A stretch of DNA of 64,000 bases from Actinophytocola xinjiangensis (GTDB lineage Bacteria > Actinomycetota > Actinomycetes > Mycobacteriales > Pseudonocardiaceae). Below the pieces are notes generated by a model, which saw nothing but the letters and a program-made list of their open reading frames with translations, was not told where the DNA came from and made no database searches. The stretch is from assembly GCF_001921215.1 (NCBI RefSeq), contig NZ_MSIF01000005.1:1-64000 (forward strand), in the 5' to 3' direction. Within the stretch, counting starts at the first letter, position 1, and each line of letters starts with the position of its first letter. Of this stretch, positions 18,604-41,057 are shown piece by piece. The translations under genes were made by a program, and so were the position numbers.

Positions 18604-20898
18604 CTAGCGTCCGACGTCGCTCCTGGCGGCGGCGGCCACGATCCGCACCGACTCGTACCAGGTCAGCACCCGCTCCTCGACCAGCCGCGCGGCCAGGACA
18701 CCGACGTGCGCCACGAACAGGCCGTGGTGGGACCAGGGCCGGTCGTCGCGGATCAGGTCGTTGACCGTGCAGTCGGGCCCGGTGGCGTGGTTGGTGACAC
18801 CGCTGTCGACCGTGCCGAGCACGACGGTGGGCCGGGGGTCGGGGGCGGTGCCGCTCTCGGCGCAGACCGGGGTGTCGTAGCGCAGCAGGGTCGACCCGGA
18901 GCTGGCGTAGACGTCGCCGGAGCTGTGCACGGCCAGGTGGCCGACGGCCCGGTCGGCGAGCACGGTGCGTTCGCCGTCGCCGTCGGGGTCGAGGCTGAAC
19001 AGGGTCCGGCCGGCGAGGCTGCCGTAGAGCAGGCCGTCGACCGGGTTGTACTCCAGGGAGCCGGCCGAGCTGGTGGACGAGCCGTAGCTGTGCCGGACGG
19101 TGACCTCGGCGGTGTCCACGTCGACGGCGAACACCTCCTGGCCGGCCACGCCCCACAGCCGGCCCTGGTCGTCGAAGCTCAGCGCGGGGATCGTCGGTTT
19201 GCCGGGCGCCGGCACGAACTCCCACAGCTTGCGGCCTTCGGCGACCGACCAGGCGAACACCTTCGCCTCGGTCTGCGTCGGCGGCGTCGCGGAGTGTCCA
19301 CTGTAGATGGTGGTGCCGCCGTAGAGGACGCCGTCGCGGTAGGCCAGCGCCTCGATGCCCTGGTCGGTCACCACGCCGCGTTCGCTGGTCACCAGCTCAC
19401 CGGTGGCCGGGTCGTACAGCGCGAGCACCCCGGCCAGTTCTCCGAGCACCGCGAGCGTGCCGACCGCGACCAGGTCACCGGCGCCGGTCAGCGCGCGCGG
19501 GCGGATCTGGCGCTGGGCCTTGAAGTCGAACAGCCGCTTGGGGTTGTCGGCGTGGCCGGGCTCGGGGTGCGGCGAGTACTCGGGGCTGTGCCAGGGCAGC
19601 GCCGGGTCGTAGGCGTAGACCCGCGCGTCGGGGTAGGCGCCGACGTAGAGCGTGCCGTTGTGGTTGAGCATGCCCTCGGACTGGGAGAAGGTGTTGAACT
19701 CCTCGATCGCGCCGCTGTCGGGGTTGACCGCGGCGAACCCGCCGTTGAGGAAACCGCCGGTGTAGACCCGGCCGTCGGGGCCCTCGGCCAGGGTCGTGAT
19801 GTCGATCGGCTCGCCCTGCACGGCCGTCGGCAGGAACGACGAGGCGCCCGTTTCCGGGTTGTAGCGGAACATCTGGCCGCGCCACAGCAGGCCGACGAGG
19901 CTCTGGCCCGGGTAGTCGGGGTCGTCGAGCTCGGCCCAGCCGATGCCCCGGGTGTTGGCCACCCGGCCGGTGAACGGCACGCCGGTCTCGGTGAGCTCGC
20001 CGGTCGCCGGGTCGTAGCGGACGAGTTCGTTGGACCGGATCAGGTAGACCTCGCCGCCGGTGTCGGCGGGCGAGGGTTCCAGGCCGTGCACGTTCTCGAT
20101 CCGGTCGACCCACCGGCCGGCGGTGATGTCCCAGACGTGCAGCGGCGCCGGGAACGCCTCGCCGAAACGCACGTAGAGGTGGTCGCCGACCACGTCGACG
20201 TCGTAGGCCCAGGACTTGTCGTGGTCGGTCAGGTCCTCGGGCAGCGGCAGGGCGGTGCGCTCGCCGGTGTTCTTGTCGACGGCGTAGACCAGGCCGGGGT
20301 TCTCGGTGCCGGCGTAGATGGTGTCGCCGTGGGTGTCGACGCTGCGGACGTAGAGGCGCTCCGGGTCGAGTTGGCCGTAGTCGCGGAACTGGCCGGTGGC
20401 CGGGTCGTAGGAGAACAGCGAGCCGCCCGAGGAGGTGCCGCCGTAGACGACCGAGTTCTCGTCGGTGGCCACGTCCCAGACGAAGTCGGCGCCGAACGGC
20501 CGGCCGAGGTCGGTGAGGCCGCCGGCCTCGGTCCAGCGGAACAGTTTCGCCGAGCCGTAGGTGCCGACGTAGACGCTGCCGTCGGGGGCCGAGGTGACCG
20601 CCCACGAGCCGCCGGAGCCGGTCAGCGGGTAGCGGGCGAGGACCTCGCCGGTGTTCGGGTCGACGGCGTTGAGGTGGGCGGGGGCGCCGGAGGAGGCGCT
20701 CCACAGGACGGTCCGCCCGCCGGGTCCTGGGGCGACGACGCCGCCGATGAGCAGCACGTCCTGCAGGGGCGTGCCGATCTCGGTGACCCGGTCGGTGACC
20801 TGGTCGCTGGTGGGCGCTGGCTGGGCGCCGGCCGTGGCCGGCGTGGTCAGGGGTAAGGCGATGGCGAGGCTGAGCAGGGCGACGACGCTGCGTTTCAT
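18604..20898 (-). CDS. Secreted beta-propeller protein 1, with shared C-terminal domain
   Basis: A 764-residue exported protein of unknown function. A Sec signal (MKRSVVALLSLAIALPLTTPATAGA) is followed by many propeller-type blades built on YDPATGE/VNPDSG, GPDGRVYTGG and GGTSSGGSLF-like repeats, resembling PQQ/WD-like or SMP-30-like propellers, to about residue 690. The last 75 residues form a separate unit: GTVDSGVTNHATGPDCTVNDLI, HHGLFVAHVGVLAARLVEE and the ending IVAAAARSDVGR. This tail recurs in the protein at 21051-23585. AGGAGA precedes ATG 20898. Divergent from propeller 2; an operator copy (20957) lies 58 bases upstream. A role in sugar or glycan binding outside the cell is only a guess. 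Confidence 0.8.
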   Translation of the reverse strand: MKRSVVALLSLAIALPLTTPATAGAQPAPTSDQVTDRVTEIGTPLQDVLLIGGVVAPGPGGRTVLWSASSGAPAHLNAVDPNTGEVLARYPLTGSGGSWAVTSAPDGSVYVGTYGSAKLFRWTEAGGLTDLGRPFGADFVWDVATDENSVVYGGTSSGGSLFSYDPATGQFRDYGQLDPERLYVRSVDTHGDTIYAGTENPGLVYAVDKNTGERTALPLPEDLTDHDKSWAYDVDVVGDHLYVRFGEAFPAPLHVWDITAGRWVDRIENVHGLEPSPADTGGEVYLIRSNELVRYDPATGELTETGVPFTGRVANTRGIGWAELDDPDYPGQSLVGLLWRGQMFRYNPETGASSFLPTAVQGEPIDITTLAEGPDGRVYTGGFLNGGFAAVNPDSGAIEEFNTFSQSEGMLNHNGTLYVGAYPDARVYAYDPALPWHSPEYSPHPEPGHADNPKRLFDFKAQRQIRPRALTGAGDLVAVGTLAVLGELAGVLALYDPATGELVTSERGVVTDQGIEALAYRDGVLYGGTTIYSGHSATPPTQTEAKVFAWSVAEGRKLWEFVPAPGKPTIPALSFDDQGRLWGVAGQEVFAVDVDTAEVTVRHSYGSSTSSAGSLEYNPVDGLLYGSLAGRTLFSLDPDGDGERTVLADRAVGHLAVHSSGDVYASSGSTLLRYDTPVCAESGTAPDPRPTVVLGTVDSGVTNHATGPDCTVNDLIRDDRPWSHHGLFVAHVGVLAARLVEERVLTWYESVRIVAAAARSDVGR

Positions 20899-20956
20899 CG
20901 GTTCTCCTGGCGTGGGGCCACGGGGTGTCCGGGACTCTAACGCCCAGGGCCAATAT

Positions 20957-20968
20957 CGGTAAAGACCG
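20957..20968. promoter_or_regulatory. Regulon operator A
   Basis: CGGTAAAGACCG, flanked by ATAT and AAAC. One of seven copies of an imperfect palindrome (consensus CGGYCYRGMCCG) found only in front of transcription units of this accessory locus. It lies between the divergent propeller genes 1 and 2, nearer propeller 1. Confidence 0.7.
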
Positions 20969-21015
20969 AAACTGTGGCACTGGTGACCTGGCCCGCGAGG
21001 TGTACGGTCCTATAA

Positions 21016-21027
21016 CGGCTCAGACCG
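21016..21027. promoter_or_regulatory. Regulon operator B
   Basis: CGGCTCAGACCG, flanked by ATAA and AAAC, 23 bases before the propeller 2 start codon and 59 bases from copy A. A possible -10 (TATAAC, 21011-21016) touches it, which would suit repression. Confidence 0.72.
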
Positions 21028-21050
21028 AAACCCGCCCCGAGGAGGCCGTT

Positions 21051-23585
21051 ATGCGACGAGCCCACCGAGCCCGACGAGCGCTACGCCTGGCGATCGTCGC
21101 CGCGAGCGTGGCGCTGATCGCCCCGACAGCGCCGGCAGCCGCCGCCGACCCCGTCTTCCGCGAGATCAGCCCGCTGCCGCTGGACGGCGTCACCTCCCCC
21201 GGCTCGGCCCTGGGCACCGGACCCGACGGCCAGCCCTGGCTCTACCTCGTCTCCTCCGGGTCGCCGGCCGTGCTCAGCGTCGTCGACGCCCGCACCGGCG
21301 AACGCCAGCACGAGTTCCCGCTGCCCGGCGCCGCCGGCTCGTGGGCGGTCCAGACCGCACCCAACGGCGACGTCTACCTCGGCACCTACTCCCAGGGCCG
21401 GCTCTACCGCTGGACCCCCGGCGCCGCCGCCGTCGAGGACCTCGGCCAGCAGATCCCCGGCGAGACGTTCATCTGGTCGCTGGACATCGACCAGGACGGC
21501 ACCGTCTACGGCACCACCGGCCAGTTCGACGCGCACGCCTTCCGCCACGACCCGGCCACCGGCCGGACCACCGACCTCGGCGCGCTGGGCGCCGGACCGG
21601 AGAACCTGATCGCCCGCTCCATCGCCGTCGGCGACGGGAAGGCCTTCGTCGGCACCGGCGCCACCCCCCGGTTGGTCGAGATCGACCTGGCCACCGGCGC
21701 CCACCGCGACCTCGACCTGCCCGCGCCGGCCCGCGAGCTGGACTACGTCTACGACCTCGACCTGCGCGGCTCGCTGCTGTTCGTCCGCGCCACCCCCGAC
21801 GGCCGCCCCCAGCCGCTGTACGTCTACGACGTCGCCACCGGCGAGTGGATCGACACCATCCCCGGCGCCCACGGCCTGACCGTGTCCCCCACCGCCGCCG
21901 ACGGCACCACGGTCTACTTCACCAAGGACGAGCAGCTGTACCGCTACGACCTGACGACCCGCGAGTGGACCGCCACCGGCGTCGGCGGCGTCGCCGACCT
22001 GCGCGGCTTCGGCTTCCTCGACCTCGGCCAGGACGACTGGCCTGGCCAGAGCCTGGTGGGCCTGGACCACCAGGGCGGCTACGTCGTGTACTCGCCGGCC
22101 ACCGGCGCCCTCGAACACCGCACCGCCGACGCGGTCGCCGCCCCGGCACCCATCCGCTCGATCACCGAGGGCCCCGACGGCCTGGTGTACGCGGGCGCCT
22201 TCCTCGCCGGCGGCCTCGCCAGCTACGACCCGGCCACCGGCCAGACCCGGGGTTTCGCCCCTGAGGTCGGCCAGGCCGAGGGCATGACCAGCCACGACGG
22301 CGCGCTGTGGGTCGGCACCTACCCCGGCGGCGAGATCTACCGCTACCGCCCAGACGAGCCGACCGAACCGGGCATCAACCCGAGGCGGGTGCTGCGCCTG
22401 TACGAGAGCGCCGGCCAGTCCCGGCCCTTCGCGCTGACCTCCGCCGGCCGCTACCTCGCGATCGGCACGGTCGCGCGCAACGGCCACCCCGGCGGTGGCC
22501 TGACCCTGCTCGACCCGGCCACCGGCGAGCACTGGTTCGACGACGTGGTGCCCGGCCACAGCGTCATCGGCCTGGCCTACCGCGACGGCGTGCTCTACGG
22601 CGCGACGTCGGTGTTCGGCGGCGCCGGTGGCCCGCGCCCGACCGAGACCGACGCCGTGGTGTTCGCCTACGACGTGCAGCGGCGGGTGAAGCTCTGGGAG
22701 GTCGCGCCGGTGCCCGGGGAGGGCGCGCTCGGCGAGATCGCGTTCGACCGCGACGGCAAGCTGTGGAGCCACACCCCGGTCACGGTGTTCCGGCTGGACA
22801 CCGCGACCCGGCGGGTGGAGGCGGTGCGCAACTACGGGGACTACCCGTGGGACACCGTCGAGCAGGCGTGGGTCGGCGCCCGGCTGTGGATCGACCCGTA
22901 CGACGGCGCGCCGCACGTGGTCACCCAGGGGGCGGCCTACCGGATCGACCCGGTCACCCTCGACCGCGCGCGGTTCTTCCGGCCGGCGTCGTTCGGCTTC
23001 GCGCACAACAACGGCCACTACTACCTGGCGCGCGACCCGATGGCCTGGGAGTACACGCCGGCCGAGCGGCCGGCGGCGCGGGTCACGGCCGGCGGCGAGG
23101 CCGTGGTGCCCTGCGGCGAGCAGACCGCCACGCTGTCCGGGTTCGGGCCGGGCGAGCTGGTCGAGCTGTGGCTGCGGCCCTCGGCGCACTACCTCGGGTC
23201 GGTGCGCGCCGGCCAGGACGGGCGGCTCACCCACCGGTTCACCGTGCCCGGTGATCTCCCGGCCGGGGCGCACCGGGTCGAGGTGCGGCGGGTGCAGACC
23301 AACGCCTCGCTCGGCGCGCCGGTGACCGTCGCGCCGCCGCCGCCGCAGACCGGGTACGCGACCGTCCGGTTCGGCGCGGTCGACTCGCGGGTGCCCAACC
23401 GGGCCCGCGACAACGGCTGCACGTTCCTCGACGAGGTGTGGCTGGCCGCGCCGTTCACCGATCACGGCGACGCCGTGGACACCGTCGCCGGCCTGGCCGA
23501 CCAGTGGCTCGCGGACGGTCTGTTCTCCGAGCGGGAGCGCGGCGCGGTCGTCGCGGCGGCGGCGCGGTCCGATGTCGGGCACTGA
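21051..23585 (+). CDS. Secreted beta-propeller protein 2, with shared C-terminal domain
   Basis: An 844-residue exported protein, paralogous to propeller 1. A basic signal peptide (RRALRLAIVAASVALIAPTAPAAAA) is followed by repeated blades with YDPATGQTRG, LVYAGAFLAGG, VYGTTGQF and similar motifs to about residue 680. An extra domain around 690-765 (VVPCGEQTATLSGFGPGEL, THRFTVPGDLPAG) looks like a beta-sandwich. The last 75 residues (VRFGAVDSRVPNRARDNGCTF, HGDAVDTVAGLADQWLADGL, AAAARSDVGH) match the tail of propeller 1. GAGGAGG precedes ATG 21051. It heads a four-gene unit with two amidohydrolase-fold proteins and a DegT enzyme. Function unknown. Confidence 0.8.
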   Translation: MRRAHRARRALRLAIVAASVALIAPTAPAAAADPVFREISPLPLDGVTSPGSALGTGPDGQPWLYLVSSGSPAVLSVVDARTGERQHEFPLPGAAGSWAVQTAPNGDVYLGTYSQGRLYRWTPGAAAVEDLGQQIPGETFIWSLDIDQDGTVYGTTGQFDAHAFRHDPATGRTTDLGALGAGPENLIARSIAVGDGKAFVGTGATPRLVEIDLATGAHRDLDLPAPARELDYVYDLDLRGSLLFVRATPDGRPQPLYVYDVATGEWIDTIPGAHGLTVSPTAADGTTVYFTKDEQLYRYDLTTREWTATGVGGVADLRGFGFLDLGQDDWPGQSLVGLDHQGGYVVYSPATGALEHRTADAVAAPAPIRSITEGPDGLVYAGAFLAGGLASYDPATGQTRGFAPEVGQAEGMTSHDGALWVGTYPGGEIYRYRPDEPTEPGINPRRVLRLYESAGQSRPFALTSAGRYLAIGTVARNGHPGGGLTLLDPATGEHWFDDVVPGHSVIGLAYRDGVLYGATSVFGGAGGPRPTETDAVVFAYDVQRRVKLWEVAPVPGEGALGEIAFDRDGKLWSHTPVTVFRLDTATRRVEAVRNYGDYPWDTVEQAWVGARLWIDPYDGAPHVVTQGAAYRIDPVTLDRARFFRPASFGFAHNNGHYYLARDPMAWEYTPAERPAARVTAGGEAVVPCGEQTATLSGFGPGELVELWLRPSAHYLGSVRAGQDGRLTHRFTVPGDLPAGAHRVEVRRVQTNASLGAPVTVAPPPPQTGYATVRFGAVDSRVPNRARDNGCTFLDEVWLAAPFTDHGDAVDTVAGLADQWLADGLFSERERGAVVAAAARSDVGH

Positions 23586-23586
23586 G

Positions 23587-24339
23587 ATGTCGAGCGCTGA
23601 GGGAGTGCGGGTCTTCGACGCGCACCGGATCGCCGGCCCGGTGCCCGGCGAACCCGCCGCCGACCCGGCCGGGCTGCTCGCCGACCTGGACCACCTGGGC
23701 ATCGACGCCTGCGCGGTGACCACCAGCGCCGAGCTGCTCGGCGACCCCGCCGGGGCCCCGGCGCGGGACGCGGCGAGAACCTGGTCGGCGCGGGCCAGGT
23801 TCCTGCCGGTCCCGGTGATCGTGCCGGCGGTCGCCGGCGCCGGCTGGCCGGCGGACGTGGACGAGCTGCTCGCCACCCCGCCGGCGATGGTGCGGATCTG
23901 CCCGCGGCGGCACCGGTTCGACCCGCACGGGCCGGTCGCGTCCGCCTGGTGGGCCGCGCTCGCCGGGCACGGCGTGCCGGTCGCGCTGGACGTCACCGAG
24001 TGCGGGCTGGACACGGCCGCCGCGCTCGCCCGCGCCTGGCCCGAGCTGGGACTGCTGCTGCTCACCCCCGGCTACCGCGAGCTGCGGCGGCTGGCCGAGC
24101 TGCTGGACACCGCGCCCGGCGTGCGCGTCGAGACCGGCACGCTGGTGGCCGCCGGCGCGGTGGAGTGGCTGGCGCGGCGGTTCGGCGCGCACCGGCTGGT
24201 GTTCGGCTCCGGCGCCCCGCGCTGGGACGACGCCGGTGCCCGGTTCCTGCTCGACCACCTGGAGCTGCCGGAGTCCGACGTGGCGCTGATCGCCGCCGGC
24301 AGCGCGGCGGCCCTGATCGGACAGAGGTGGCCCTGGTGA
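23587..24339 (+). CDS. Degenerate amidohydrolase-fold protein, copy 1
   Basis: A 250-residue TIM-barrel-like protein related to the next gene but with the metal-site residues lost. The first-strand motif is FDAHRIAG instead of DxHxH; the later GTD motif is replaced by VFGSGAPRWD; the central His motifs are missing. It may be a non-catalytic partner of the intact enzyme downstream (inference). ATG 23587 lies just after the propeller 2 stop; ATG 23572 is an alternative. Its stop overlaps the next start (GTGA). A second degenerate copy with the same GSGxPRxD signature is at 34685-35428. Confidence 0.72.
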   Translation: MSSAEGVRVFDAHRIAGPVPGEPAADPAGLLADLDHLGIDACAVTTSAELLGDPAGAPARDAARTWSARARFLPVPVIVPAVAGAGWPADVDELLATPPAMVRICPRRHRFDPHGPVASAWWAALAGHGVPVALDVTECGLDTAAALARAWPELGLLLLTPGYRELRRLAELLDTAPGVRVETGTLVAAGAVEWLARRFGAHRLVFGSGAPRWDDAGARFLLDHLELPESDVALIAAGSAAALIGQRWPW

Positions 24340-25097
24340 TCATCGACGCGCACGGGCACGTCGGCGGCTGGGACCAGTTCCTGGTCCCCCAGCCCTCGGC
24401 GGACTGGCTGGTGGCGACCTCGTCCAGGATCGGTATCGACGTCACCGGCATCTCGCACCTGGTGGCCGTCGGGTACGACACCCGGCTGGGCAACCGGCTC
24501 GCGCTCGCCGAGGCCGCCCGTTTCCCCGGGCGGCTGGGCGTGTGGCTGGTCGCCGACCCGCACGACCCCGACGGCCCCCGGGTGGCCGACGACCTGCTCG
24601 ACACCCCGGGCGTGTGGGGGTTCAAGCTGCACCCCGACACCCACGAGTGCCCGGTCACCGACTCCCGCTACGGGCCCTACCTGCGGCGGGCGGTCGAGCG
24701 GGGTGTGCCGGTGCTGTCGCACTCGCAGACCCGCTCGCCCTACTCCGACCCGGCCGACCTCGCCGAGGTGGTGGACCGCCATCCCGGGCTGACGCTGCTG
24801 GCCGGGCACGCCGGACTGTGGCAGGACGGGTTCGTCCGGGCCGCCGAGCTGGCCGCCGCGCACGACGGCCTGTACCTGGAGATCTGCGGGTCGCGGCTGA
24901 CGGCGCGCTGGCTGGAGCGGCTGGTCGCGATCGCCGGCGCCGAGCGGGTGCTGTTCGGCACCGACGCGACCTTCCTTGACCCGCGTGCCGGGCTGGGCAA
25001 GGTCGTCAACTCCCGGCTGTCCGCGCACGAGCGTGACCTCGTGCTGGGCGGCAACGCCGCGCGCCTGCTCGGCGCACGCCTGAACCCCGAGAGGTGA
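24336..25097 (+). CDS. Amidohydrolase family protein (intact), copy 1
   Basis: A 253-residue member of the amidohydrolase-2 (ACMSD-like) metallo-hydrolase/decarboxylase family. Metal and catalytic motifs are all present: IDAHGHVGG at the start, GFKLHPDTHE, VLSHSQTRSP, LLAGHAGLW and VLFGTDATFLD. The substrate is not known; family members hydrolyse C-N/C-O bonds or decarboxylate. GTG 24336 overlaps the stop of the degenerate paralogue (GTGA), and the DegT gene begins three bases after its stop, so the products are made together. The equivalent enzyme in the second module is at 35425-36174. Confidence 0.82.
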   Translation: MIIDAHGHVGGWDQFLVPQPSADWLVATSSRIGIDVTGISHLVAVGYDTRLGNRLALAEAARFPGRLGVWLVADPHDPDGPRVADDLLDTPGVWGFKLHPDTHECPVTDSRYGPYLRRAVERGVPVLSHSQTRSPYSDPADLAEVVDRHPGLTLLAGHAGLWQDGFVRAAELAAAHDGLYLEICGSRLTARWLERLVAIAGAERVLFGTDATFLDPRAGLGKVVNSRLSAHERDLVLGGNAARLLGARLNPER

Positions 25098-33451: not shown

Positions 33452-33457
33452 TAGTTG

Positions 33458-33469: not shown

Positions 33470-33482
33470 TTATCGTCCCGAC

Positions 33483-34688
33483 GTGACGTCCAGCGGAATC
33501 CGGTTCCCCAGCGTCGCCGAGGCGGCCGGGCGAACCCTGGGCGAGGAGGAACTCGCCGCACTGGCGCGGGTCGTGGAGTCCGGGATGCTCTCCGGGGTCT
33601 GGGGCGGCGAGGTGCCCGCCCTGGAGGCGGCGATGGCGCGGCTGCACGGGGTGGCGCACGCGGTGGCCTGTAGTTCGGGCACCGCGGCCATCCACCTGGC
33701 CGTCGCCGGCCTTGGCCTGGACCCCGGCGACGAGGTCATCACCTCGCCGATCAGCGACTTCGGCTCGGTGGCACCGATCCTGGCGTGCAACGCGGTGCCG
33801 GTGTTCGCCGACGTCGACCCGGTCACCGGAAACCTCGACCCGGCGGCCGTGGCGGCGGCCATCGGCCCACGCACCCGCGCGATCCTGGCCGTGCACCTGT
33901 TCGGTGCCGCCGCGCCGGTCGCGGCCCTGCGGGCGCTGGCCGACGAGCACGGCCTGGCGCTGGTGGAGGACTGCGCCCAGGCGTGGCTGACCCGCACCGG
34001 CGAGGACCGGCTGGCCGGCACCACCGGCGTCGCCGGCTGCTTCAGCCTCCAGCAGTGGAAGCACATCACCTGCGGCGACGGCGGCCTGGTGATCACCGAC
34101 GACGCCGCGCTGGCCCGCCGGCTGCGGCTGTTCGCCGACAAGGGCTGGCCGCGCGAGACCGGCCGCCACCACGTCAGCTTCGGCCTGAACTACCGGATGA
34201 CCGAACTCCAGGCCGCGGTCGCCGGCGCGCAGCTGACCAAGCTCCCCGGGGTGCTCGCGGCCCGCCGCCGGCTGGCCGCGCGCCTGGTCGACGCCCTCGC
34301 CGGCCTGCCCGGCCTCACCGTCCCCCGGGACGTCGAGCGGCACGCGTGGTGGCTGTTCCCGCTGGTCCTGGACCCCGGCGGGCCGGACAACCGGGAGTTC
34401 GCCGCCGGCCTCACCGAGGCAGGTGTCCCGGCGCGCGCCGGCTACCTCAACGAGGGCCTGCACTGCGCGCCCGCGGTGACCACCGCGCCGGTGTACGGGT
34501 CGAGCCGCTACCCGCTGACCAGCCCGCCGGCCGACCGGGTCCCGCGCTACGGCCCGGGGACCTGCCCGGTCGCCGAGGAGCTGATCGACCGCACGCTGGT
34601 CGTCGTCGACTGGAACGAGCGGTACACCGACGAGCACGTCGACGTGATCGCCCGCGCGGTCACCGACCTGGCGGGGAGGTCGCGCTGA
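33483..34688 (+). CDS. DegT/DnrJ/EryC1/StrS aminotransferase 2
   Basis: A 401-residue PLP aminotransferase paralogous to the one at 25101-26285. ACSSGTAAIHLAVAGLGLDPGDEV (shortened here to ACSSGTAAIHLAVAGLG) is the phosphate site, VEDCAQAWLTRTG follows, the Schiff-base Lys is in SLQQWKHITCGDGG, and FGLNYRMTELQAAV is near residue 240. The QQWKHI context resembles the aminocyclitol-type branch of the family. GTG 33483 is the only start after the propeller stop that keeps normal length; no good ribosome site is seen. Its TGA overlaps the putative CTG start of the next gene. Confidence 0.9.
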   Translation: MTSSGIRFPSVAEAAGRTLGEEELAALARVVESGMLSGVWGGEVPALEAAMARLHGVAHAVACSSGTAAIHLAVAGLGLDPGDEVITSPISDFGSVAPILACNAVPVFADVDPVTGNLDPAAVAAAIGPRTRAILAVHLFGAAAPVAALRALADEHGLALVEDCAQAWLTRTGEDRLAGTTGVAGCFSLQQWKHITCGDGGLVITDDAALARRLRLFADKGWPRETGRHHVSFGLNYRMTELQAAVAGAQLTKLPGVLAARRRLAARLVDALAGLPGLTVPRDVERHAWWLFPLVLDPGGPDNREFAAGLTEAGVPARAGYLNEGLHCAPAVTTAPVYGSSRYPLTSPPADRVPRYGPGTCPVAEELIDRTLVVVDWNERYTDEHVDVIARAVTDLAGRSR

Positions 34689-35428
34689 GCAGCCTGCTGC
34701 CCCCGGTCCCGGCCGGCCGCGAGCGCATCGGCCTGGACGTCGACGTGCTGGTCGGCCGGGTCCCCAGCCGCCACGACCTGGACGCCTCCCGCCCGGCGGT
34801 GCTCGCCGCGCTCGCCGCCGCCGGCATCGACCGCGCCCTGACCGGGTCGCTGCGCGGCGGCCTGTTCGACGCCCGCTCCGGCAACGACGAGGTCCTGGCC
34901 GACCCGTCGCCGCCGCTGATCGGAGTCGGCACCGTGGACCTGCGCGACGCCCTGACCGCCGAGACGGAGCTGGTCCGGCTGGCCGGGGCCGGGGTGCGGG
35001 TGGTGCGCCTGTTCTGCGCCGAGCAGGGCGCCGAGCCGGACTTCCCCGGCCTGCGCCACGTCGCCGCCCTCACCGCCGCCCACGACCTGACCGTCCTGAC
35101 CAGCGGCGACGTCCGCCGCTACTGGCGGCCGTTCGCGGGGCGCGGCGCGCGGGTCTGCTTCCTGGACGTGCACGCCTACCACCTCGCCGACTTCGTCCTG
35201 CTGGCCAGGGACGAGCCCGGTTTCGTCGCCTCCACCCGCCTGCTCAACGCACCGGACTCGATCGAGCGGGTCGTGGCGGAGGTCGGCGCCCACCACCTCG
35301 CCTACGGCTCGGGCCTGCCCCGTTTCGACGTCACGCCCTCCGCCCTGCGCCTGCGCCTGGCGGACCTGACGTCGCAGGACTGGGCGACGGTCAGCCACGG
35401 CACGGCACGGAGCTGGCTCACCACATGA
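34685..35428 (+). CDS. Degenerate amidohydrolase-fold protein, copy 2 (CTG start likely)
   Basis: A protein of about 247 residues related to the degenerate copy at 23587. The first-strand motif is GLDVDVLVGR (both His lost), the GTD motif is replaced by AYGSGLPRFD, and the other metal ligands are missing. Only FLDVHAYH keeps His residues, at a different place. In-frame ATG, GTG or TTG is absent before the conserved N-terminus. CTG at 34685, overlapping the previous TGA (CTGA) and preceded by GGGGAGG, is the best start; GTG 34745 would cut off the first strand. Its stop overlaps the next ATG (ATGA). Probably a non-catalytic partner of the following enzyme (inference). Confidence 0.7.
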   Translation: MSSLLPPVPAGRERIGLDVDVLVGRVPSRHDLDASRPAVLAALAAAGIDRALTGSLRGGLFDARSGNDEVLADPSPPLIGVGTVDLRDALTAETELVRLAGAGVRVVRLFCAEQGAEPDFPGLRHVAALTAAHDLTVLTSGDVRRYWRPFAGRGARVCFLDVHAYHLADFVLLARDEPGFVASTRLLNAPDSIERVVAEVGAHHLAYGSGLPRFDVTPSALRLRLADLTSQDWATVSHGTARSWLTT

Positions 35429-36174
35429 TCATCGACGTGCACGCGCATGCCGGGCCGTGGTTCTTCGCCATGGACGTCGGCGCCCCGGACCTCGGGCTGG
35501 ACCTGATGCGCCGGTACGGGATCGACGTCGCGATCGTGTCGGCGGCCGAGGCGGTCACCTACGACGTGGTCTCGGGAAACCGCTGGCTGGCCGAGGTCCT
35601 GGCCGCCGATCCGCCGGACGGGCCACGCCGCTACGGGTACGTGACGGTCAACCCGACCGACCTCGCCGCCGCCGAGGCCGACCTCACCCGGTACCTGCCC
35701 GGCGGCCGGTTCGTCGGCGTCAAGATCCACACCAGTTACCCCGCGCAGGGCCTTGGCTCCACGGCGATGCGCGAGGCGCTCGGGCTGGTCGCCGACGCCG
35801 GGGTGCCGGCGCTGGTGCACACCTGGGGCGCCGACGTCTGGTCACTGCTGGACGTGTTGGACGCGCACCCGTCGCTGCGCCTGGTCGCCGGGCACATGGG
35901 TGGGCCGGCGTGGCGCGAGGGCGTGGCCGCCGCCGTCCGCTGCGAGCGGCTCTACGTCGAGCCGTGCTGTTCGATCACCGACCGGGGCAAGGTCCGGTAC
36001 GCGCTGGACCGGGTCCCGCCGGGCCAGGTGCTGTTCGGCACCGACGCCACGCTGATCGACCCGGCGGTCTCGCTCGGCATGGTCGCCGACGCGGAACCGG
36101 ACGACGAGGAGCGCGAGCGGATGCTGTGGCGCAACGCCTCGGAGTTGTTCGGTATCCCCGTGCGCACGGCCTAG
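35425..36174 (+). CDS. Amidohydrolase family protein (intact), copy 2
   Basis: A 249-residue amidohydrolase-2 family enzyme, paralogous to 24336-25097. All ligand motifs are visible: IDVHAHAGPW, GVKIHTSYPAQ, ALVHTWGAD, LVAGHMGGPAW and VLFGTDATLIDP. It is translationally coupled (ATGA) to the degenerate copy and ends the module headed by propeller 3. Hydrolysis or decarboxylation of a locus-specific metabolite is likely, but which is not shown by sequence. The ABC importer genes follow after a new promoter. Confidence 0.83.
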   Translation: MIIDVHAHAGPWFFAMDVGAPDLGLDLMRRYGIDVAIVSAAEAVTYDVVSGNRWLAEVLAADPPDGPRRYGYVTVNPTDLAAAEADLTRYLPGGRFVGVKIHTSYPAQGLGSTAMREALGLVADAGVPALVHTWGADVWSLLDVLDAHPSLRLVAGHMGGPAWREGVAAAVRCERLYVEPCCSITDRGKVRYALDRVPPGQVLFGTDATLIDPAVSLGMVADAEPDDEERERMLWRNASELFGIPVRTA

Positions 36175-36212: not shown

Positions 36213-36226
36213 CCGGGTCTATATTT

Positions 36227-36238
36227 CGGTCCGGACCG
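36227..36238. promoter_or_regulatory. Regulon operator E (perfect palindrome)
   Basis: CGGTCCGGACCG is a perfect 12-base palindrome and the best match to the locus consensus. It sits about 8 bases downstream of the predicted transcription start and 20 bases before the binding-protein gene, a roadblock position expected for repression. Confidence 0.78.
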
Positions 36239-36258
36239 CTATTAGGAAGGAAGCGCCC

Positions 36259-37497
36259 ATGAGAAAGGTGGCGGCAGCCAGCCTGGCGCTCTCGCTCGGT
36301 CTCGTCGTGGCGGCCTGTGGGGACTCCGGGACCGGCGACGGTTCCTCGGTCACCATGTGGATGTACCCGGTCATCGCCGACCAGGAGGCCAGCAGGACGT
36401 TCTGGACCGAGGTCGAGCAGGAGTTCGAGAAGGCGAACTCCGACATCGACCTCACCATCGAGCTCCAGCCGTGGGACGGCCGGCAGGAGACGATCTCCAC
36501 CGCCCTGGCCTCCGGCACCGGCTTCGACATCGTGCTGCTCTCCCCCGACCAGATCCCCCAGCACGCCGAGCAGGGCTCACTGCTCCCGGTCGACGACCTG
36601 GTCGCCGACGAGGTCGACGCGTTCCTGCCCAACGCCGTCCAGGCCCTCACCGTCGACGGCGAGCTCTACGGCGCGCCGATCTACCACACGGTCGTCACGC
36701 CCATGTACAACAAGGCGCTGTTCGCCGAGGCCGGCATCACCGAACCGCCGGCCACCTGGGACGACCTGGTCGCGGCCGCCGGCCCGCTGGCCGCCAAGGG
36801 CATCCCGGTCCTGGACTACCCCGGCGACCCCGAGGAGACCCTCAACCTCACCTTCTACCCGCTGCTGTGGCAGGCCGGCGGCCAGGTGTTCTCCGACGAC
36901 GGCAAGTCCGTCGCCTTCGACGAGCCCGCCGGGGTGAAGGCCCTGCAGCTGCTCGCCGACCTCAACGAGGCCGGTGGGCTGCCCAAGGACGCGCCGACCA
37001 CCAAGAACACCGTCGAGGGGCGCGCGTTCACCAACGGCAAGGCCGCCGTCCTGCAGGGCGCCGACCTGGCCACCGCCCAGCAGCTGATCACCGCGCTCGG
37101 CGAGGACACCGCCGTGCCGATCCCGCCGCTGACCGACGACGCCCAGGTCACCTTCGGCATCCCCGGCGCCCTGTCGGTCTCGCACGCCACCGAGAACACC
37201 GACGCCGTCGCCACGGTCCTGAAGTACCTGTCCAGCGCCGACACCGCCACGAAGCTCGCCGAGGCGTCCGGGTTCTTCCCCGCGCGCACCGACGTCCAGA
37301 TGCCGGCGCAGGGCCCCGGCGTCGAGGTGTTCGCCGGCGCGCTGGAGTTCGCCAACCCAGGGGACGCGCACCCGGCCGCCCGCCAGGTGATGTCGATCCT
37401 CGCCCCGCAGGTGCAGGCGGTGCTGCTGGGCAAGAAGACGCCCGAGCAGGCGCTGGCCGACGCCGCCGCCGAGGCGGACCCGGTGCTCGCCAGGTGA
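36259..37497 (+). CDS. Sugar-type ABC transporter substrate-binding lipoprotein
   Basis: A 412-residue extracellular binding protein of the family 1 carbohydrate type. The lipoprotein signal ends LSLGLVVAAC, anchoring the protein outside the membrane. Typical segments are MWMYPVIADQEASRTFW, GTGFDIVLLSPDQIPQHAEQ, APIYHTVVTPMYNKALF and AEASGFFPARTDV. AGGAAGGA precedes ATG 36259. It is first in the importer operon behind operator E and overlaps the first permease gene. Substrate unknown; probably an oligosaccharide or sugar derivative, by family. Confidence 0.92.
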   Translation: MRKVAAASLALSLGLVVAACGDSGTGDGSSVTMWMYPVIADQEASRTFWTEVEQEFEKANSDIDLTIELQPWDGRQETISTALASGTGFDIVLLSPDQIPQHAEQGSLLPVDDLVADEVDAFLPNAVQALTVDGELYGAPIYHTVVTPMYNKALFAEAGITEPPATWDDLVAAAGPLAAKGIPVLDYPGDPEETLNLTFYPLLWQAGGQVFSDDGKSVAFDEPAGVKALQLLADLNEAGGLPKDAPTTKNTVEGRAFTNGKAAVLQGADLATAQQLITALGEDTAVPIPPLTDDAQVTFGIPGALSVSHATENTDAVATVLKYLSSADTATKLAEASGFFPARTDVQMPAQGPGVEVFAGALEFANPGDAHPAARQVMSILAPQVQAVLLGKKTPEQALADAAAEADPVLAR

Positions 37498-38408
37498 GGA
37501 GCCAGCCGAGCGTGACGCGGCGCGCCGGGGGCGAACGCCCCTGGCGCGTCCGGCTGCGCGACCCGGTCACCGGCCTGCTGTTCGTGCTGCCGATGCTGGT
37601 GCTGTTCGTGGTGTTCCGGTTCCTGCCGCTGGCCGGCTCGGTCGGCATGAGCTTCACCGACTACCGGATCAACGGCAGCTGGGACCCGGTCGGGCTGGAC
37701 AACTACCAGCGGCTGCTGTCCGACCCGGTGTTCCTCGACAGCCTCCAGGTCACCCTGATCTACGCGGCGATCTACGTGCCGCTGACCGTGGGTGTCGCCC
37801 TGGGCACCGCGCTGCTGCTCAACACGGTGGTCTTCGCCACCGGCCTGTTCCGCGGCGTGCTGTTCCTGCCGTACGTGACCAGCTTCGTGCTGGCCGGCGT
37901 GATCTGGCGCTGGGTGTACGAGTTCGACGGGCTGATCAACGGCCTGCTCGCCAAGGTCGGCTTCGAACCGATCGGCTTCCTGCAGGAGTCCTCGCTGGTG
38001 CTGCCGTCGCTGGCGGTGGTGGCGGCCTGGCGCGGCTTCGGGTACTCGATGCTGATCCTGATCGCCGGCCTGAAGTCCATTCCGGACTCGTTCCTGGAGG
38101 CGGCCAGGGTGGACGGCGCGTCGACCTGGCAGCGGTTCCGGTTCGTGGTGCTGCCACACCTGCGCCCGGTGCTGTTCTTCGTGCTGGTCATCGAGACCAT
38201 CGCCGCCTTCCAGGTCTTCGACACGATCTACGTGATGACCGGCGGCGGCCCGGTCCGGGCCAGCTACAGCCTGGTCTACGCCCTGTTCGACCAGGGCTTC
38301 GAGTTCTTCGACTTCGGCTACGCCGCGACCATCGGCATCGCGCTGTTCGTGATCATCCTGGTGATCTCGCTGATACAGCGGAAACTGCTCGACCGGGAGA
38401 CGACATGA
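37494..38408 (+). CDS. ABC sugar transporter permease 1 (MalF type)
   Basis: An inner-membrane permease of about 304 residues with six hydrophobic segments, beginning VTGLLFVLPMLVLFVVF and carrying the ATPase-docking EAA loop EAARVDGASTWQRFRFVVLP near residue 205 and the characteristic FDTIYVMTGGGP. GTG 37494 overlaps the previous stop (GTGA). GTG 37512 is the alternative and has a better ribosome site (GAGGAG at 37496-37501). Very long readings to 36357 are shadows over the binding-protein gene. Confidence 0.92.
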   Translation: MRSQPSVTRRAGGERPWRVRLRDPVTGLLFVLPMLVLFVVFRFLPLAGSVGMSFTDYRINGSWDPVGLDNYQRLLSDPVFLDSLQVTLIYAAIYVPLTVGVALGTALLLNTVVFATGLFRGVLFLPYVTSFVLAGVIWRWVYEFDGLINGLLAKVGFEPIGFLQESSLVLPSLAVVAAWRGFGYSMLILIAGLKSIPDSFLEAARVDGASTWQRFRFVVLPHLRPVLFFVLVIETIAAFQVFDTIYVMTGGGPVRASYSLVYALFDQGFEFFDFGYAATIGIALFVIILVISLIQRKLLDRETT

Positions 38409-39223
38409 CAGGCCGCCGCACGAGGGGGCAGGGGGCGCTGATCGCGCTGCTCGCGGTGATCTCCCTGCTCACCGTGGCCCCGTTCCTGGTGATGCTGGTG
38501 CTGGCGCTGTCGCCGCCCGGGGTGCAGAGCATCCCCGACCAGCTGCCCGACGAGCTGACCACCGACAACATCACCGGGGTGCTGTCCTCCCACGGCATGG
38601 TCCGCTGGACGCTGAACTCGGCGATCTACTCGGTGGTGTCGGTGGTGGTCATCCTGATCACCGCGACCATGGCCGGCTACGCCTTCGCGAAGAAACGCTT
38701 CCCCGGCCGGGACGCGCTGCTGTGGTCGTTCCTCGCGACGCTCATGGTCCCCTTCCAGGCGCTGCTGATCCCCACGTTCGTACTGGTCTCGGAGCTGGAC
38801 GGGGTGAACACGTTCTGGGGTCTGATCGTGCCGACGCTCGCGAACTCGCAGGCGGTGTTCCTGATGCGCCAGTTCATCCGCGAGCTGCCCGACGAACTGT
38901 TCGACGCCGCCAAGGTCGACGGCGCGTCCGAGTGGTGGGTGTTCTGGCGCCTGGTCCTGCCGCTCACCAAACCCATCCTGGCCACCCTCGGCGTGTTCGT
39001 GTTCCTCTGGCACTGGAACGACTTCCTGTGGCCGCTGGTCATCGCCCAGAGCGACAAGATGCGCACCCTGACGGTCGGCCTGGCCACCCTGCACGGCCAG
39101 AACGTCACCACCGCCGAACTGATGGCCGCCGCGACGGTGAGTGTCGTGCCGTGTCTGGTGGTGTTCTGGCTGCTCCAGCGGTACCTGGTGAACAGCATCA
39201 CGATGAGCGGGCTCAAGGGCTGA
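38405..39223 (+). CDS. ABC sugar transporter permease 2 (MalG type)
   Basis: A 272-residue inner-membrane permease with six predicted helices and the EAA loop (DAAKVDGASEWWVFWRLVLP). It ends in a MalG-like NSITMSGLKG. It is coupled to permease 1 by an ATGA overlap. No ATP-binding subunit lies in the window; actinomycete carbohydrate importers of this class usually borrow a shared MsiK-type ATPase encoded elsewhere (family knowledge). Confidence 0.93.
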   Translation: MTGRRTRGQGALIALLAVISLLTVAPFLVMLVLALSPPGVQSIPDQLPDELTTDNITGVLSSHGMVRWTLNSAIYSVVSVVVILITATMAGYAFAKKRFPGRDALLWSFLATLMVPFQALLIPTFVLVSELDGVNTFWGLIVPTLANSQAVFLMRQFIRELPDELFDAAKVDGASEWWVFWRLVLPLTKPILATLGVFVFLWHWNDFLWPLVIAQSDKMRTLTVGLATLHGQNVTTAELMAAATVSVVPCLVVFWLLQRYLVNSITMSGLKG

Positions 39224-39252: not shown

Positions 39253-40155
39253 ATGCAGCCAGCCACGCGGGTCACCGAGCTGGCCGGCCGGCTCGACGGC
39301 CGGCTGATCGCCGCTGCCGCCACCCCGCTTCCGGCCGGCCCGGCCCCCGACCCCGGGGTGCTCGACGCCTACCTCGCCGGGCTGGTCGCCGACGGCGCCG
39401 GCGGGCTGGCGGTGTGCGCGCACACCGGCCGGGGTCCCTTCCTCGACCGCGCGGCGCGGGACCTGGTCGTGCGCCGCGCGGCCGCACTGGGGGTGCCGGT
39501 GATCGCCGGTGTCGGCGGGGCCGGCTCGGACGCGATGGCCGACGCGCGACTGGCGGCGGCCGGTGGGGCGGACGCGCTGCTGGTGTTCCCGCCGCCGGCC
39601 GACCCGCTCGGTCACCACGACGCGCTGTGGCGGGCGACCGGCCTGCCGCTGGTCGCGTTCGACCTGTACACCGCGCCCTACTCGCCGGCCGAGCTGGCGG
39701 CGTTGCTGGCGCATCCCGGTGTCGCCGGCGTCAAGCTGGCCCGGCTGCACGACGCGATCGCCTGCCAGGCCGGCATCGCGGCGGCCCGGGAAGCGGGGCG
39801 GCTGGCGATCACCGGCGAGGACCGGATGTTCGGGCCGTCGCTGATGTGGGGGGCGCGGGCGGCGCTGGTCGGCCTGGCCGCGGCGGCCGTCGGCCTGACC
39901 GCCGGGGTGCTGGAGTCCTACCTCGCCGGCCGGTACGCCGAGTTCGTCACCCGCTCGGCACGGCTGGACGCGCTGGCCGACGTGACCTTCCGCGAACCGT
40001 ACGAGGGTTACGTGCAGCGGATGCTGTGGATCGCCGAGGCGGAGGGCCGGATCCCGCCCGGCCACGCCCTCGACCCCCACGCCCCACTCCTGACCGCCGA
40101 CGACCGCCCCCGCGTGCTCTCCACCTGGCGCGACCTGACCGAGATCGAGGTGTGA
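39253..40155 (+). CDS. Dihydrodipicolinate-synthase-family protein 2
   Basis: A 300-residue DapA-family Schiff-base lyase/aldolase. Family features are GRLIAAAATPLPAGPAPD at the start, GAGGLAVCAHTGRGPFL, the Tyr segment VAFDLYTAPYSP and the Schiff-base Lys in GVAGVKLARLHD. It differs from DHDPS-like protein 1 in lacking the C-terminal extension. ATG 39253 lies 29 bases after the permease stop, probably in the same operon, and the Gfo/Idh gene follows two bases later. Likely acts on a keto-deoxy sugar acid or similar (inference). Confidence 0.83.
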   Translation: MQPATRVTELAGRLDGRLIAAAATPLPAGPAPDPGVLDAYLAGLVADGAGGLAVCAHTGRGPFLDRAARDLVVRRAAALGVPVIAGVGGAGSDAMADARLAAAGGADALLVFPPPADPLGHHDALWRATGLPLVAFDLYTAPYSPAELAALLAHPGVAGVKLARLHDAIACQAGIAAAREAGRLAITGEDRMFGPSLMWGARAALVGLAAAAVGLTAGVLESYLAGRYAEFVTRSARLDALADVTFREPYEGYVQRMLWIAEAEGRIPPGHALDPHAPLLTADDRPRVLSTWRDLTEIEV

Positions 40156-40157
40156 CC

Positions 40158-41057
40158 ATGCGGATCGCGCTCGCCGGGCTGGCCACCAGCCACCCGTTCA
40201 CCGACGCGAGGACCCTGGCCGACCACGCCGACCTGGTCGCGTGGGAGCCCGACCCGGCGCGGCGCGCCCGCTTCCTCACCGAACACCCGTCGGCCACGCT
40301 CACCGACGACCTGCCGTCGCTGCTGGCCACCGACCCCGACGGGGTCGTGCTCACCGTGCCGACCCCCGACCTGGCCGACGGACTGACCCAGGTCCTGGCG
40401 AGGGGCCTGCCGTGCCTGCTCAACAAGCCCGCCGCCGCCACCCCCGACCAGCTGCGACGCCTGGACACGGCCGCCGCGCTCGCCCCGAACCGGGTCATGT
40501 CCTCGTCGGTGCTGCGGTTCGCGCCCGCGCTCGCGGACCTGACCTTCGACCGTGACGACGTCGTCGCCGTCAGGGCCACCGTTCGCCACGACGTCGGGCT
40601 GTGGGCCACCGGCTACAACCCCTGGCAGGACGACCCGGCGGTCGGCGGCGGAACGCTGGTGTCGATGGGCATCCACGGCCTGGAACTACTGGTGGCCCTG
40701 CTGGGCGCCGAGGTCGAACTGGCCGGCGCCACCACCGGCGTCCGCCACCACGGCGGCCTGCGTTCCGAGGACACGGCCACACTCGCGCTGCGGTGGTCCG
40801 ACGGCATCACCGGCTGCGTCGAGGTGATCGGGGCGACGGAGATCGAGTTCTACGAGGTCACGCTGCACCTGCGGTCGGGCGAGGTACGCACGGTGATCGA
40901 ACCGGGGGACGATCCGGTGGAGGGCCTCGGCTACCGGGGAATGATCGAGGCGTTCCTCGGTCTCGTGCGCGACGGTGTCACCCCGGTGCCCTGGGAACAG
41001 ACCCGCGCGATCCTGAAGGTACTGACCACGGCCCGCTCAGCCACGGTCCAGGCCTGA
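40158..41057 (+). CDS. Gfo/Idh/MocA family oxidoreductase
   Basis: A 299-residue NAD(P)-dependent sugar or cyclitol dehydrogenase. The Rossmann start is MRIALAGLATSHPF, an atypical GxGxx[34 protein letters not shown] (the conserved EKP-like segment appears as NKP) and GGGTLVSMGIHGLELLVAL, with the catalytic His, follow. The Glu-to-Asn change at the EKP motif and the loose glycine motif suggest a divergent subgroup. It is the last gene of the importer operon. Reaction probably oxidation of an imported sugar, not proven. Confidence 0.82.
   Translation: MRIALAGLATSHPFTDARTLADHADLVAWEPDPARRARFLTEHPSATLTDDLPSLLATDPDGVVLTVPTPDLADGLTQVLARGLPCLLNKPAAATPDQLRRLDTAAALAPNRVMSSSVLRFAPALADLTFDRDDVVAVRATVRHDVGLWATGYNPWQDDPAVGGGTLVSMGIHGLELLVALLGAEVELAGATTGVRHHGGLRSEDTATLALRWSDGITGCVEVIGATEIEFYEVTLHLRSGEVRTVIEPGDDPVEGLGYRGMIEAFLGLVRDGVTPVPWEQTRAILKVLTTARSATVQA

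What the first reader, a model, noticed from the sequence alone, without database searches (positions are those of the whole stretch)
18604..41057. Undescribed-looking regulated metabolic locus with secreted propellers, paired amidohydrolases and a sugar importer
About 22 kb holds three secreted propellers, two DegT enzymes, four amidohydrolase-fold proteins, two sugar epimerases, two DHDPS-like enzymes, a Gfo/Idh enzyme, an acetyl-esterase, an ABC importer and one regulator. All appear to share one operator. I know of no characterised pathway with this set. The importer and esterase suggest uptake and deacetylation of an unusual (amino) sugar or cyclitol; the propellers may capture or cleave it outside the cell. 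The function is inference; the gene content and shared sites are seen.
Basis: partly seen in the sequence, partly recalled or inferred. Interest (0 to 1): 0.8.

Follow-up and report, generated by a model that had tools for sequence, protein, structure and literature searches.

The report
Conserved actinomycete saccharide-scavenging regulon
A block of 19 genes in a soil actinomycete, apparently switched together by one new-looking regulator at one DNA site, seems to capture, import and break down an unidentified modified sugar by a route for which no description was found.

Summary
Window 18604-41057 has 19 genes with the stated content, in six apparent transcription units, each headed by an 18-bp palindrome, TTWCGGTC-NN-GACCGWAA. 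Of 14 distinct pattern sites in the 9.5-Mb genome, 7 lie here.

The block looks like a real regulon. In 28 loci with the regulator (window included) there are 84 operator sites; 80 lie just upstream of a block gene, and Markov runs give 0-2. Three flanking genes are conserved in 0 of 29 related loci.

Two corrections. The "four amidohydrolases" are two enzyme/pseudoenzyme pairs: 48 of 48 active-type rows keep all five metal/catalytic residues, 44 of 44 partner rows none or one. The acetyl-esterase is not core (2 of 29 loci).

Best reading: an inducible capture-import-catabolism regulon for an amino- or acyl-substituted saccharide, under an unclassified winged-helix regulator with a weakly supported GTP-cyclohydrolase-III/GGDEF-like domain. 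The regulon is well supported by sequence; substrate and amidohydrolase chemistry are not. No described match was found. Structure prediction failed, then was switched off.

The parts
18604..20898 (-). propA: secreted (Sec-type N-terminus, by eye) beta-propeller protein
   Evidence: PQQ_2 1.9e-13, DUF6923 2.4e-7
20954..20971 (.). operator site between propA and propB, 2 mismatches
21013..21030 (.). operator site upstream of propB, 3 mismatches
21051..23585 (+). propB: secreted beta-propeller protein; its C-terminal end resembles that of propA (by eye)
   Evidence: PQQ_2 5.6e-7, DUF6923 3.1e-6
23572..24339 (+). AH1: degenerate Amidohydro_2 pseudoenzyme, partner of AH2
   Evidence: Pfam 1.2e-7; metal ligands lost in the homologues aligned
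24336..25097 (+). AH2: Amidohydro_2 enzyme with full HxH/H/H/D set
   Evidence: Pfam 7.6e-35
25101..26285 (+). DegT1: DegT/DnrJ/EryC1/StrS aminotransferase, Lys200 conserved
   Evidence: Pfam 7.5e-89
26316..26333 (.). operator upstream of Epi1, 1 mismatch; no mismatch at the same place in L040, L042-L047, L049, L050 and L052
26343..27356 (+). Epi1: NAD-epimerase-family SDR without the catalytic Lys
   Evidence: Pfam 4.7e-7
27359..28402 (+). DHD1: DHDPS/NAL-superfamily protein; Lys172 and Tyr144 conserved, pyruvate-binding loop replaced by HTTQ
   Evidence: Pfam 2e-8
28407..29618 (-). REG: regulator, unassigned N-terminal part + GTP-cyclohydrolase-III/GGDEF-like middle part (weak scores) + C-terminal winged helix
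29671..30627 (-). AXE: acetyl-xylan-esterase-family hydrolase (accessory, seen in 2 of 29 relatives)
   Evidence: Pfam 9.5e-101
30638..31369 (-). Epi2: NAD-epimerase-family SDR with YxxxK (accessory, seen in 4 of 29 relatives)
   Evidence: Pfam 1.9e-20
31371..31388 (.). operator between Epi2 and propC, 2 mismatches
31410..31427 (.). second operator between Epi2 and propC, 2 mismatches
31442..33451 (+). propC: secreted beta-propeller protein
   Evidence: DUF6923 5.6e-9, Reg_prop 2.4e-6; family profile nearest to solved sensor-kinase propellers
33455..33472 (.). weaker operator-like site before DegT2, inside the propC unit, 3 mismatches
33483..34688 (+). DegT2: DegT-family aminotransferase, Lys193 conserved
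   Evidence: Pfam 1.9e-86
34685..35428 (+). AH3: degenerate Amidohydro_2 pseudoenzyme, partner of AH4 (start codon uncertain; first usual start 34745)
   Evidence: Pfam 2.9e-6
35425..36174 (+). AH4: Amidohydro_2 enzyme with full HxH/H/H/D set
   Evidence: Pfam 6.1e-31
36224..36241 (.). operator upstream of SBP, 2 mismatches
36259..37497 (+). SBP: sugar-type solute-binding lipoprotein (lipobox by eye)
   Evidence: SBP_bac_1 6.4e-41
37494..38408 (+). Per1: ABC permease
   Evidence: BPD_transp_1 2.5e-15; UgpA-like below cut-off
38405..39223 (+). Per2: ABC permease
   Evidence: BPD_transp_1 3.6e-21
39253..40155 (+). DHD2: second DHDPS-superfamily protein, HTGR in place of the pyruvate-binding loop (start uncertain; searched from 39220)
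   Evidence: Pfam 5.9e-11
40158..41057 (+). Gfo: Gfo/Idh/MocA-family oxidoreductase
   Evidence: GFO_IDH_MocA_C3 4.9e-11

Best explanation
An inducible saccharide-utilisation regulon. REG binds the 18-bp palindrome that heads all six apparent transcription units, its own included, and most likely represses them until it senses an intermediate. The secreted propellers bind or cleave a glycan outside the cell; SBP-Per1-Per2, with an ATPase coded elsewhere, import the product; Gfo, the SDRs, the two DHDPS-fold enzymes and two modules of 'DegT aminotransferase + active amidohydrolase with a dead partner' dismantle it without a kinase. The imported sugar most likely carries an amino or acyl substituent. 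SHOWN by sequence: gene content, co-conservation, conserved operators at gene starts, conserved enzyme/pseudoenzyme pairs. INFERRED: REG as the binder and as a repressor, shared ATPase, catabolic direction, propeller role, substrate class. OPEN: the reaction of the amidohydrolases.
For: In 29 related loci: REG 27, importer genes 27 each, DHD1 24, a propeller 23, Epi1 22, DHD2 22, DegT2 18, Gfo 18, AH3 14, AH4 13, in changed gene order; three flanking genes 0 of 29. All 19 genes in G031, 16 of 19 in G330, 17 of 19 in G240 and G353. Of 394 class genomes 18 hold REG, 19 hold AH2, 15 both; hypergeometric 6e-21, relatedness not corrected for. 84 operators in 28 REG loci (window included), 80 from -30 to 300 bp upstream of a block gene (starts extrapolated), Markov runs 0, 0, 2, 0, 0; 4 of 69 other loci hold any site, two of them contigs that end at DHD1. 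Many sites lie 20-60 bp before the start, where a repressor would act. REG-like proteins (23-31% identity) lie within about 4 kb of DHD1 in six Bacilli loci, L070, L081, L082, L083, L090 and L104. Some Epi1-DHD1 loci elsewhere carry GH20, NagA, NagB, amidase, PL22-like or PL3 genes. Precedent for an amidohydrolase-fold deacetylase followed by a PLP deaminase on an amino-sugar acid: OngB/OngC (PMC9537276, PMC12017989; passages read).
Against: No enzyme was tested and no transcript seen. The active AHs are nearest to an uncharacterised protein (3cjp, 1.9e-20), then to decarboxylases and hydratases (gamma-resorcylate decarboxylase 1.5e-17, ACMSD 9e-13, 4-oxalomesaconate hydratase 3e-10), not to deacetylases, so amide hydrolysis is only one option. 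The named DegT relatives of DegT2 are mostly nucleotide-sugar or cyclitol biosynthetic. In many Epi1-DHD1 loci no nitrogen-removing gene was recognised, though neighbours were only partly scanned. Three REG loci (G363:C16, G416:C11, G558) show propellers and importer without DegT or AH in 38 kb; G416 has a second REG and a DegT1-AH2-AH1 row on contig C44. PL3, GH20 and the like come from other loci, each from few, not from this one.
Confidence: 0.6

Rival explanations
1. Same regulon, but a sugar-acid/uronate pathway in which the amidohydrolases act as lactonases, decarboxylases or hydratases and no N-acyl group is involved: Gfo or an SDR makes a lactone, AH2/AH4 open or decarboxylate it, DHD1/DHD2 dehydrate or cleave the keto acid; the DegT enzymes handle one amino-deoxy position.
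For: Named solved relatives of AH2/AH4 are decarboxylases and hydratases, further off a lactone-opening 2-pyrone-4,6-dicarboxylate hydrolase at 1.1e-5 and 4dlf at 0.0016 (that 4dlf is a sugar lactonase is recalled). DHD1 is nearest to N-acetylneuraminate lyase 3.5e-6, DHDPS and L-2-keto-3-deoxyarabonate dehydratase; DHD2's only NCBIfam match is 5-dehydro-4-deoxyglucarate dehydratase, 42.6 bits against a cut-off of 278. FAA-hydrolase, 2-hydroxyacid dehydrogenase and enolase-superfamily genes occur near Epi1-DHD1 or near AH1-AH2. Lyase-type genes occur in a few loci.
Against: Does not by itself explain two aminotransferases and the hexosaminidase, NagA and NagB neighbours.
Confidence: 0.35
2. 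Envelope-glycan or nucleotide-sugar biosynthesis or remodelling, where the DegT enzymes build amino sugars and the propellers work in the cell wall.
For: DegT and epimerase families are mostly biosynthetic; DegT2's nearest solved relatives include perosamine synthetases and ArnB.
Against: No glycosyltransferase, nucleotidyltransferase or kinase among the Pfam matches of the block; an importer is among its most conserved parts (27 of 29); distribution is patchy: two other same-genus genomes hold a REG and at least three do not, unlike a housekeeping wall pathway.
Confidence: 0.12
3. Scavenging or making of an aminocyclitol or aminoglycoside-like compound, the two aminotransferases acting on two ring amines.
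For: DegT2's relatives include 2-deoxy-scyllo-inosose aminotransferases; the loop around its Lys looks like theirs (recalled). Two parallel DegT+AH modules would fit two nitrogen positions.
Against: No cyclitol synthase, kinase or glycosyltransferase among the Pfam matches; neighbours in other loci point to hexosamines and uronates; none of the 10 papers listed of 42 concerns aminocyclitol breakdown.
Confidence: 0.1

Closest known systems
Oxidative chitin utilisation (ong) pathway of Pseudoalteromonas (PMC9537276, passages read; PMC12017989, passages read)
   Same: Uptake, then an amidohydrolase-fold enzyme and a PLP enzyme acting in turn on an amino-sugar acid, with a dedicated repressor.
   Different: Ong uses an SSS symporter, a D-aminoacylase-like OngB, KdgK kinase, RidA-family OngD and a MurR/RpiR regulator; the block has an ABC importer, Amidohydro_2 pairs, DegT, two DHDPS-fold enzymes, no kinase, and an unrelated regulator.
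Actinobacterial sugar ABC-importer operons with a local repressor and a shared ATPase (general knowledge)
   Same: Lipoprotein SBP, two permeases, no ATPase in the operon, local regulator and palindromic operator.
   Different: REG shows no match to the effector domains of the usual LacI, ROK, GntR or DeoR classes, and six units with 19 genes share the operator.
DHDPS / N-acetylneuraminate lyase superfamily
   Same: Pfam DHDPS matches; Schiff-base Lys (DHD1, DHD2) and Tyr (DHD1) conserved.
   Different: The usual GxxGE pyruvate loop (recalled) is HTTQ in DHD1 and HTGR in DHD2; only weak similarity of DHD1 to any solved member (none at 1e-8, best 3.5e-6).
ACMSD / gamma-resorcylate decarboxylase branch of Amidohydro_2
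   Same: Fold family and metal-ligand set of AH2 and AH4.
   Different: About 250 residues, with an adjacent ligand-less partner in 29 of 30 loci and an adjacent DegT in 16 of 30.

Membership tests
Single-regulator regulon | one conserved operator at the start of every unit | tested here: met
   one of the 28 REG loci (G558) has no site with <=2 mismatches
Single-regulator regulon | REG binds the operator and controls the units | not testable with these tools
   only co-occurrence is shown: sites in 27 of 28 loci with REG and in 4 of 69 others
DegT/DnrJ/EryC1/StrS aminotransferase | family match and PLP-binding Lys | tested here: met
   Pfam; Lys in every ungapped row of 14 DegT2 and 5 DegT1 rows
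Amidohydro_2 enzymes (AH2, AH4) | HxH, two further His, Asp | tested here: met
   48 of 48 rows, the window's AH2 being in twice
Amidohydro_2 enzymes (AH1, AH3) | HxH, two further His, Asp | tested here: not met
   0 of 44 rows have all five, 44 of 44 have none or one; 6 rows have a gap at a ligand; the window's AH1 is in twice
Canonical DHDPS/NAL enzymes | Schiff-base Lys | tested here: met
   Lys172 at >=95% of ungapped rows, 67 DHD1 rows and 11 DHD2 rows
Canonical DHDPS/NAL enzymes | GxxGE pyruvate-binding loop (recalled) | tested here: not met
   HTTQ / HTGR conserved instead
Oxidative chitin (ong) pathway | GH20, D-aminoacylase-type deacetylase, KDG kinase, RidA, MurR/RpiR regulator in one cluster | tested here: not met
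   none among the Pfam matches of the block
PL22 oligogalacturonate lyase (propellers) | Pectate_lyase22 match | tested here: not met
   no match at E<=0.1 for propA, propB or propC
LacI/GntR/ROK/TetR-type regulators (REG) | matching effector domain | tested here: not met
   winged-helix matches only in REG itself, plus GGDEF_GdpP and GCH_III each in 5 of 12 relatives

The most novel reading that the evidence does not exclude
An undescribed kinase-free pathway for a doubly substituted (for example di-N-acylated diamino) saccharide: two parallel modules, each a DegT aminotransferase with a heterodimer of an active and a dead amidohydrolase, feed two unusual DHDPS-fold enzymes. It is controlled by a new class of transcription factor that senses a pathway intermediate through a GTP-cyclohydrolase-III/GGDEF-like domain and that is also found near the same core gene pair in Bacilli.
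Probability: 0.25. Interest if true: 0.78.

Novelty: new variant of a known kind. Interest (0 to 1): 0.56.

Why it matters
It would add a catabolic route to the many unassigned sugar-uptake loci of soil actinomycetes, a catabolic use of DegT enzymes, a conserved enzyme/pseudoenzyme pair in the amidohydrolase superfamily, and a regulator that matches no NCBIfam model. The Epi1-DHD1 pair is spread over several bacterial phyla (67 of 80 fetched DHD1 loci hold Epi1 by gene call), so one substrate assignment would annotate a widely scattered two-gene module.

Tried and rejected
Rejected: esterase as the key to the substrate (2 of 29). My own idea that each Epi1-DHD1 locus pairs an amide hydrolase with an amino-group remover (note): it would fit this block only if the AHs cleave amides, and fits Ruania (NagA+NagB) and some Bacilli (M20 peptidase, serine dehydratase chains), but nothing of the kind was recognised in Bradyrhizobium and other alphaproteobacteria apart from an amidase in L071, and the AHs' named relatives are not deacetylases. 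Ong pathway as a match. Aminocyclitol breakdown in print: none among the 10 papers listed of 42. Propellers as PL22: no Pfam match.

Led nowhere: structure prediction of propC and REG. NCBIfam gave no match above its cut-off for the 18 of 19 block proteins tested (Per2 was not), only for two flanking genes. Eight accepted paper searches of ten allowed gave no description of the set.

Limits: gene starts in loci come from a simple codon-composition caller. The 28 REG loci include the window and ten Nonomuraea and are not independent. The 29-locus matrix includes L053 and L054, whose contigs end at DHD1, so REG could not be seen, and many loci are cut at 10-20 kb, so absences there are uncertain; L039 was left out as the same contig as G031; G146, G047 and G010 (REG about 30%) were left out; identity thresholds were set by me. 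Of 161 operonic neighbour proteins, 62 were scanned together, which counts families without naming loci. Class-III aminotransferase (L094, L114) was recognised by eye only. One search, meant to remove duplicate rows, did not catch the window's AH1/AH2, which entered also as L156.
Full report
What is there. The finding spans 19 genes. Searches place them and name them by Pfam: propA(-); propB-AH1-AH2-DegT1(+); Epi1-DHD1(+); Epi2-AXE-REG(-); propC-DegT2-AH3-AH4(+); SBP-Per1-Per2-DHD2-Gfo(+). The six units are read from gene order and spacing, not from transcripts. The window lies in a 9.5-Mb genome. The nearest named relative is Actinophytocola gossypii (L039, REG 88% identical); the genome tool ranks G031, a contig of the same length with the same matches, in the same genus, so the window is probably from that genus (inference).

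The operator. Reading the intergenic stretches gave the palindrome TTWCGGTCNNGACCGWAA. In the window 8 sites have at most 3 mismatches; 7 are in the block, six at unit starts and one before DegT2; Markov runs give 0.3 on average (20 runs). A pattern search of the whole genome gave 16 rows, two of them the second strand of the same sites, so 14 distinct sites, 7 in the block, against 1 for the reversed pattern. Since the consensus came from these sites, the relatives are the real test: 28 loci with a REG of at least 36% identity (the window included) hold 84 sites with at most 2 mismatches; 80 lie from -30 to 300 bp upstream of a block gene, 27 of 28 loci hold at least one (G558 none), and five Markov runs of the same loci give 0, 0, 2, 0, 0. 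Of 69 other loci 4 hold a site, two of which (L053, L054) are actinobacterial contigs that end at DHD1. Fisher's exact test gives 1e-18, but the loci are related and not independent (ten are Nonomuraea). In most of the Nonomuraea-type loci a site lies between REG and DegT2 about 30 bp from the REG start, and in the window REG is the last gene of a unit headed by two sites, so REG probably controls itself.

Co-conservation. REG was found in 11 of 200 family genomes at 1e-20 and 18 of 394 class genomes at 1e-40, the window's own genome included in both. Contexts show the same set in different order: 29 related loci hold REG 27, SBP/Per1/Per2 27 each, DHD1 24, any propeller 23, Epi1 22, DHD2 22, DegT2 18, Gfo 18, AH3 14, AH4 13, AH2 9, AH1 8, DegT1 7, Epi2 4, AXE 2, and the three flanking genes 0. 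Absences are partly due to short loci. G031 holds all 19; G330 holds 16, G240 and G353 17. AH2 (1e-25) is in 19 of 394 class genomes and REG in 18, with 15 shared. Three loci (G363:C16, G416:C11, G558) have REG, propellers and importer but no DegT or AH within the 38 kb read, though G416 has a second REG and a DegT1-AH2-AH1 row on another contig. In G363 a propeller is fused to a DUF6351 tannase-like domain (4.6e-243), and G416 has a 77% identical protein.

Enzyme/pseudoenzyme pairs. Typed by best match and then aligned, 48 of 48 AH2/AH4-type rows keep HxH, both further His and the Asp; 44 of 44 AH1/AH3-type rows keep none or one (27 none; six rows have a gap at a ligand; the window's AH1 and AH2 are each in twice). 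Of the 32 AH2-type matches, 30 gave loci; in 29 of these the degenerate partner is adjacent, the exception L181 beginning near a contig edge. A DegT lies beside the pair in 16 of 30, the FAA-hydrolase relative in 9, a REG-like protein alone in 4 and none of the searched partners in 1. So the dead partner is a conserved feature; a heterodimer is the simplest inference.

The core pair Epi1-DHD1. By gene call, 67 of the 80 hold Epi1; record titles span actinobacteria, alphaproteobacteria, Bacilli, Bacteroidota, Acidobacteriota and others. Neighbours include GH20 (L074, L084, L087; L093 by clustering), NagB (L061), NagA (L061: 3.1e-31 to a solved GlcNAc-6-P deacetylase; L057 by clustering), GlcNAc 2-epimerase (L057), amidase (L071), M20 peptidase (cluster of L081, L082, L084, L113), serine dehydratase chains (clusters in L081, L082, L090, L104, L110), PL22-like (L060), PL3 (L046), an enolase-superfamily protein (L107), and FAA hydrolases (L059 type). 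Away from that pair, G146 has a heparinase II/III-like gene beside a DegT-AH1-AH2-FAA hydrolase-DegT-REG row. Several alphaproteobacterial loci instead have Gfo/Idh, DUF993, AP_endonuc_2 or NMT1-type transport. This points to sugars or sugar acids, with both hexosamine and uronate themes, and does not decide between them. REG-like proteins lie near the pair in L070, L081, L082, L083, L090 and L104.

Regulator. REG's C-terminus gives only generic winged-helix matches. Of 12 relatives, 5 match GGDEF_GdpP (best 8.4e-10) and 5 GCH_III (best 4.7e-5), REG itself neither; the profile's best solved-structure match is GTP cyclohydrolase III at 9.5e-4. No NCBIfam model matches. I infer a one-component regulator with a nucleotidyl-cyclase-like sensory fold; weak scores keep this provisional.

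Chemistry. DHD1 and DHD2 keep the Schiff-base Lys but not the usual pyruvate loop. The AHs are nearest to an uncharacterised protein, then to decarboxylases and hydratases, DegT2 to sugar and cyclitol aminotransferases, propellers to two-component sensor-kinase propellers (2.9e-12), which suggests ligand binding as much as cleavage. I therefore commit to the catabolic regulon (about 0.6) and leave the bond cleaved by the AHs open.

Known or new. Searches of the held library (8 of 10 allowed) listed no paper that I could see describing this set; only listings and starts of abstracts were seen, apart from passages of PMC9537276 and PMC12017989. Most subscription-journal papers and all bioRxiv preprints are missing from the library, so absence in print is not proven. 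The kind (regulated sugar-uptake locus) is known; the enzyme set, the paired pseudoenzymes and the regulator make it a new variant.

Noticed in passing
L149:9566-14110 (+) and L154:8950-13482 (-): 1515/1511-aa proteins, 77% identical, joining a block-type propeller with a DUF6351 tannase-like domain (Pfam run on the first only), beside tandem REG copies and the importer.
   Followed up: partly
L035:10387-18581: Row of Gfo/Idh, heparinase II/III-like, DegT, AH pseudoenzyme, AH, FAA hydrolase and DegT followed by a REG-like gene (33%), without the operator at <=3 mismatches: a possible sister system.
   Followed up: partly
L046:17708-18943: PL3 pectate lyase with ricin-type lectin domains between DHD2 and the propeller in Nonomuraea solani.
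   Followed up: no
window 42013-43017 and 41243-42013: F420-dependent glucose-6-phosphate dehydrogenase beside a helical-backbone metal-receptor protein, just outside the block.
   Followed up: no
L059:2471-4480 and relatives (cluster 18, 6 loci): About 670-aa protein without a Pfam match at 1e-4, beta-helix-looking by eye, beside Gfo/Idh-like, importer, Epi1-DHD1, 2-hydroxyacid dehydrogenase and FAA-hydrolase-type genes.
   Followed up: no
L148-L149 (G363), L154-L155 (G416), L016-L018: The REG family has paralogous branches: tandem copies in G363 and G416, and 31-35% relatives in G047, G146 and G010; worth a family model of its own.
   Followed up: partly
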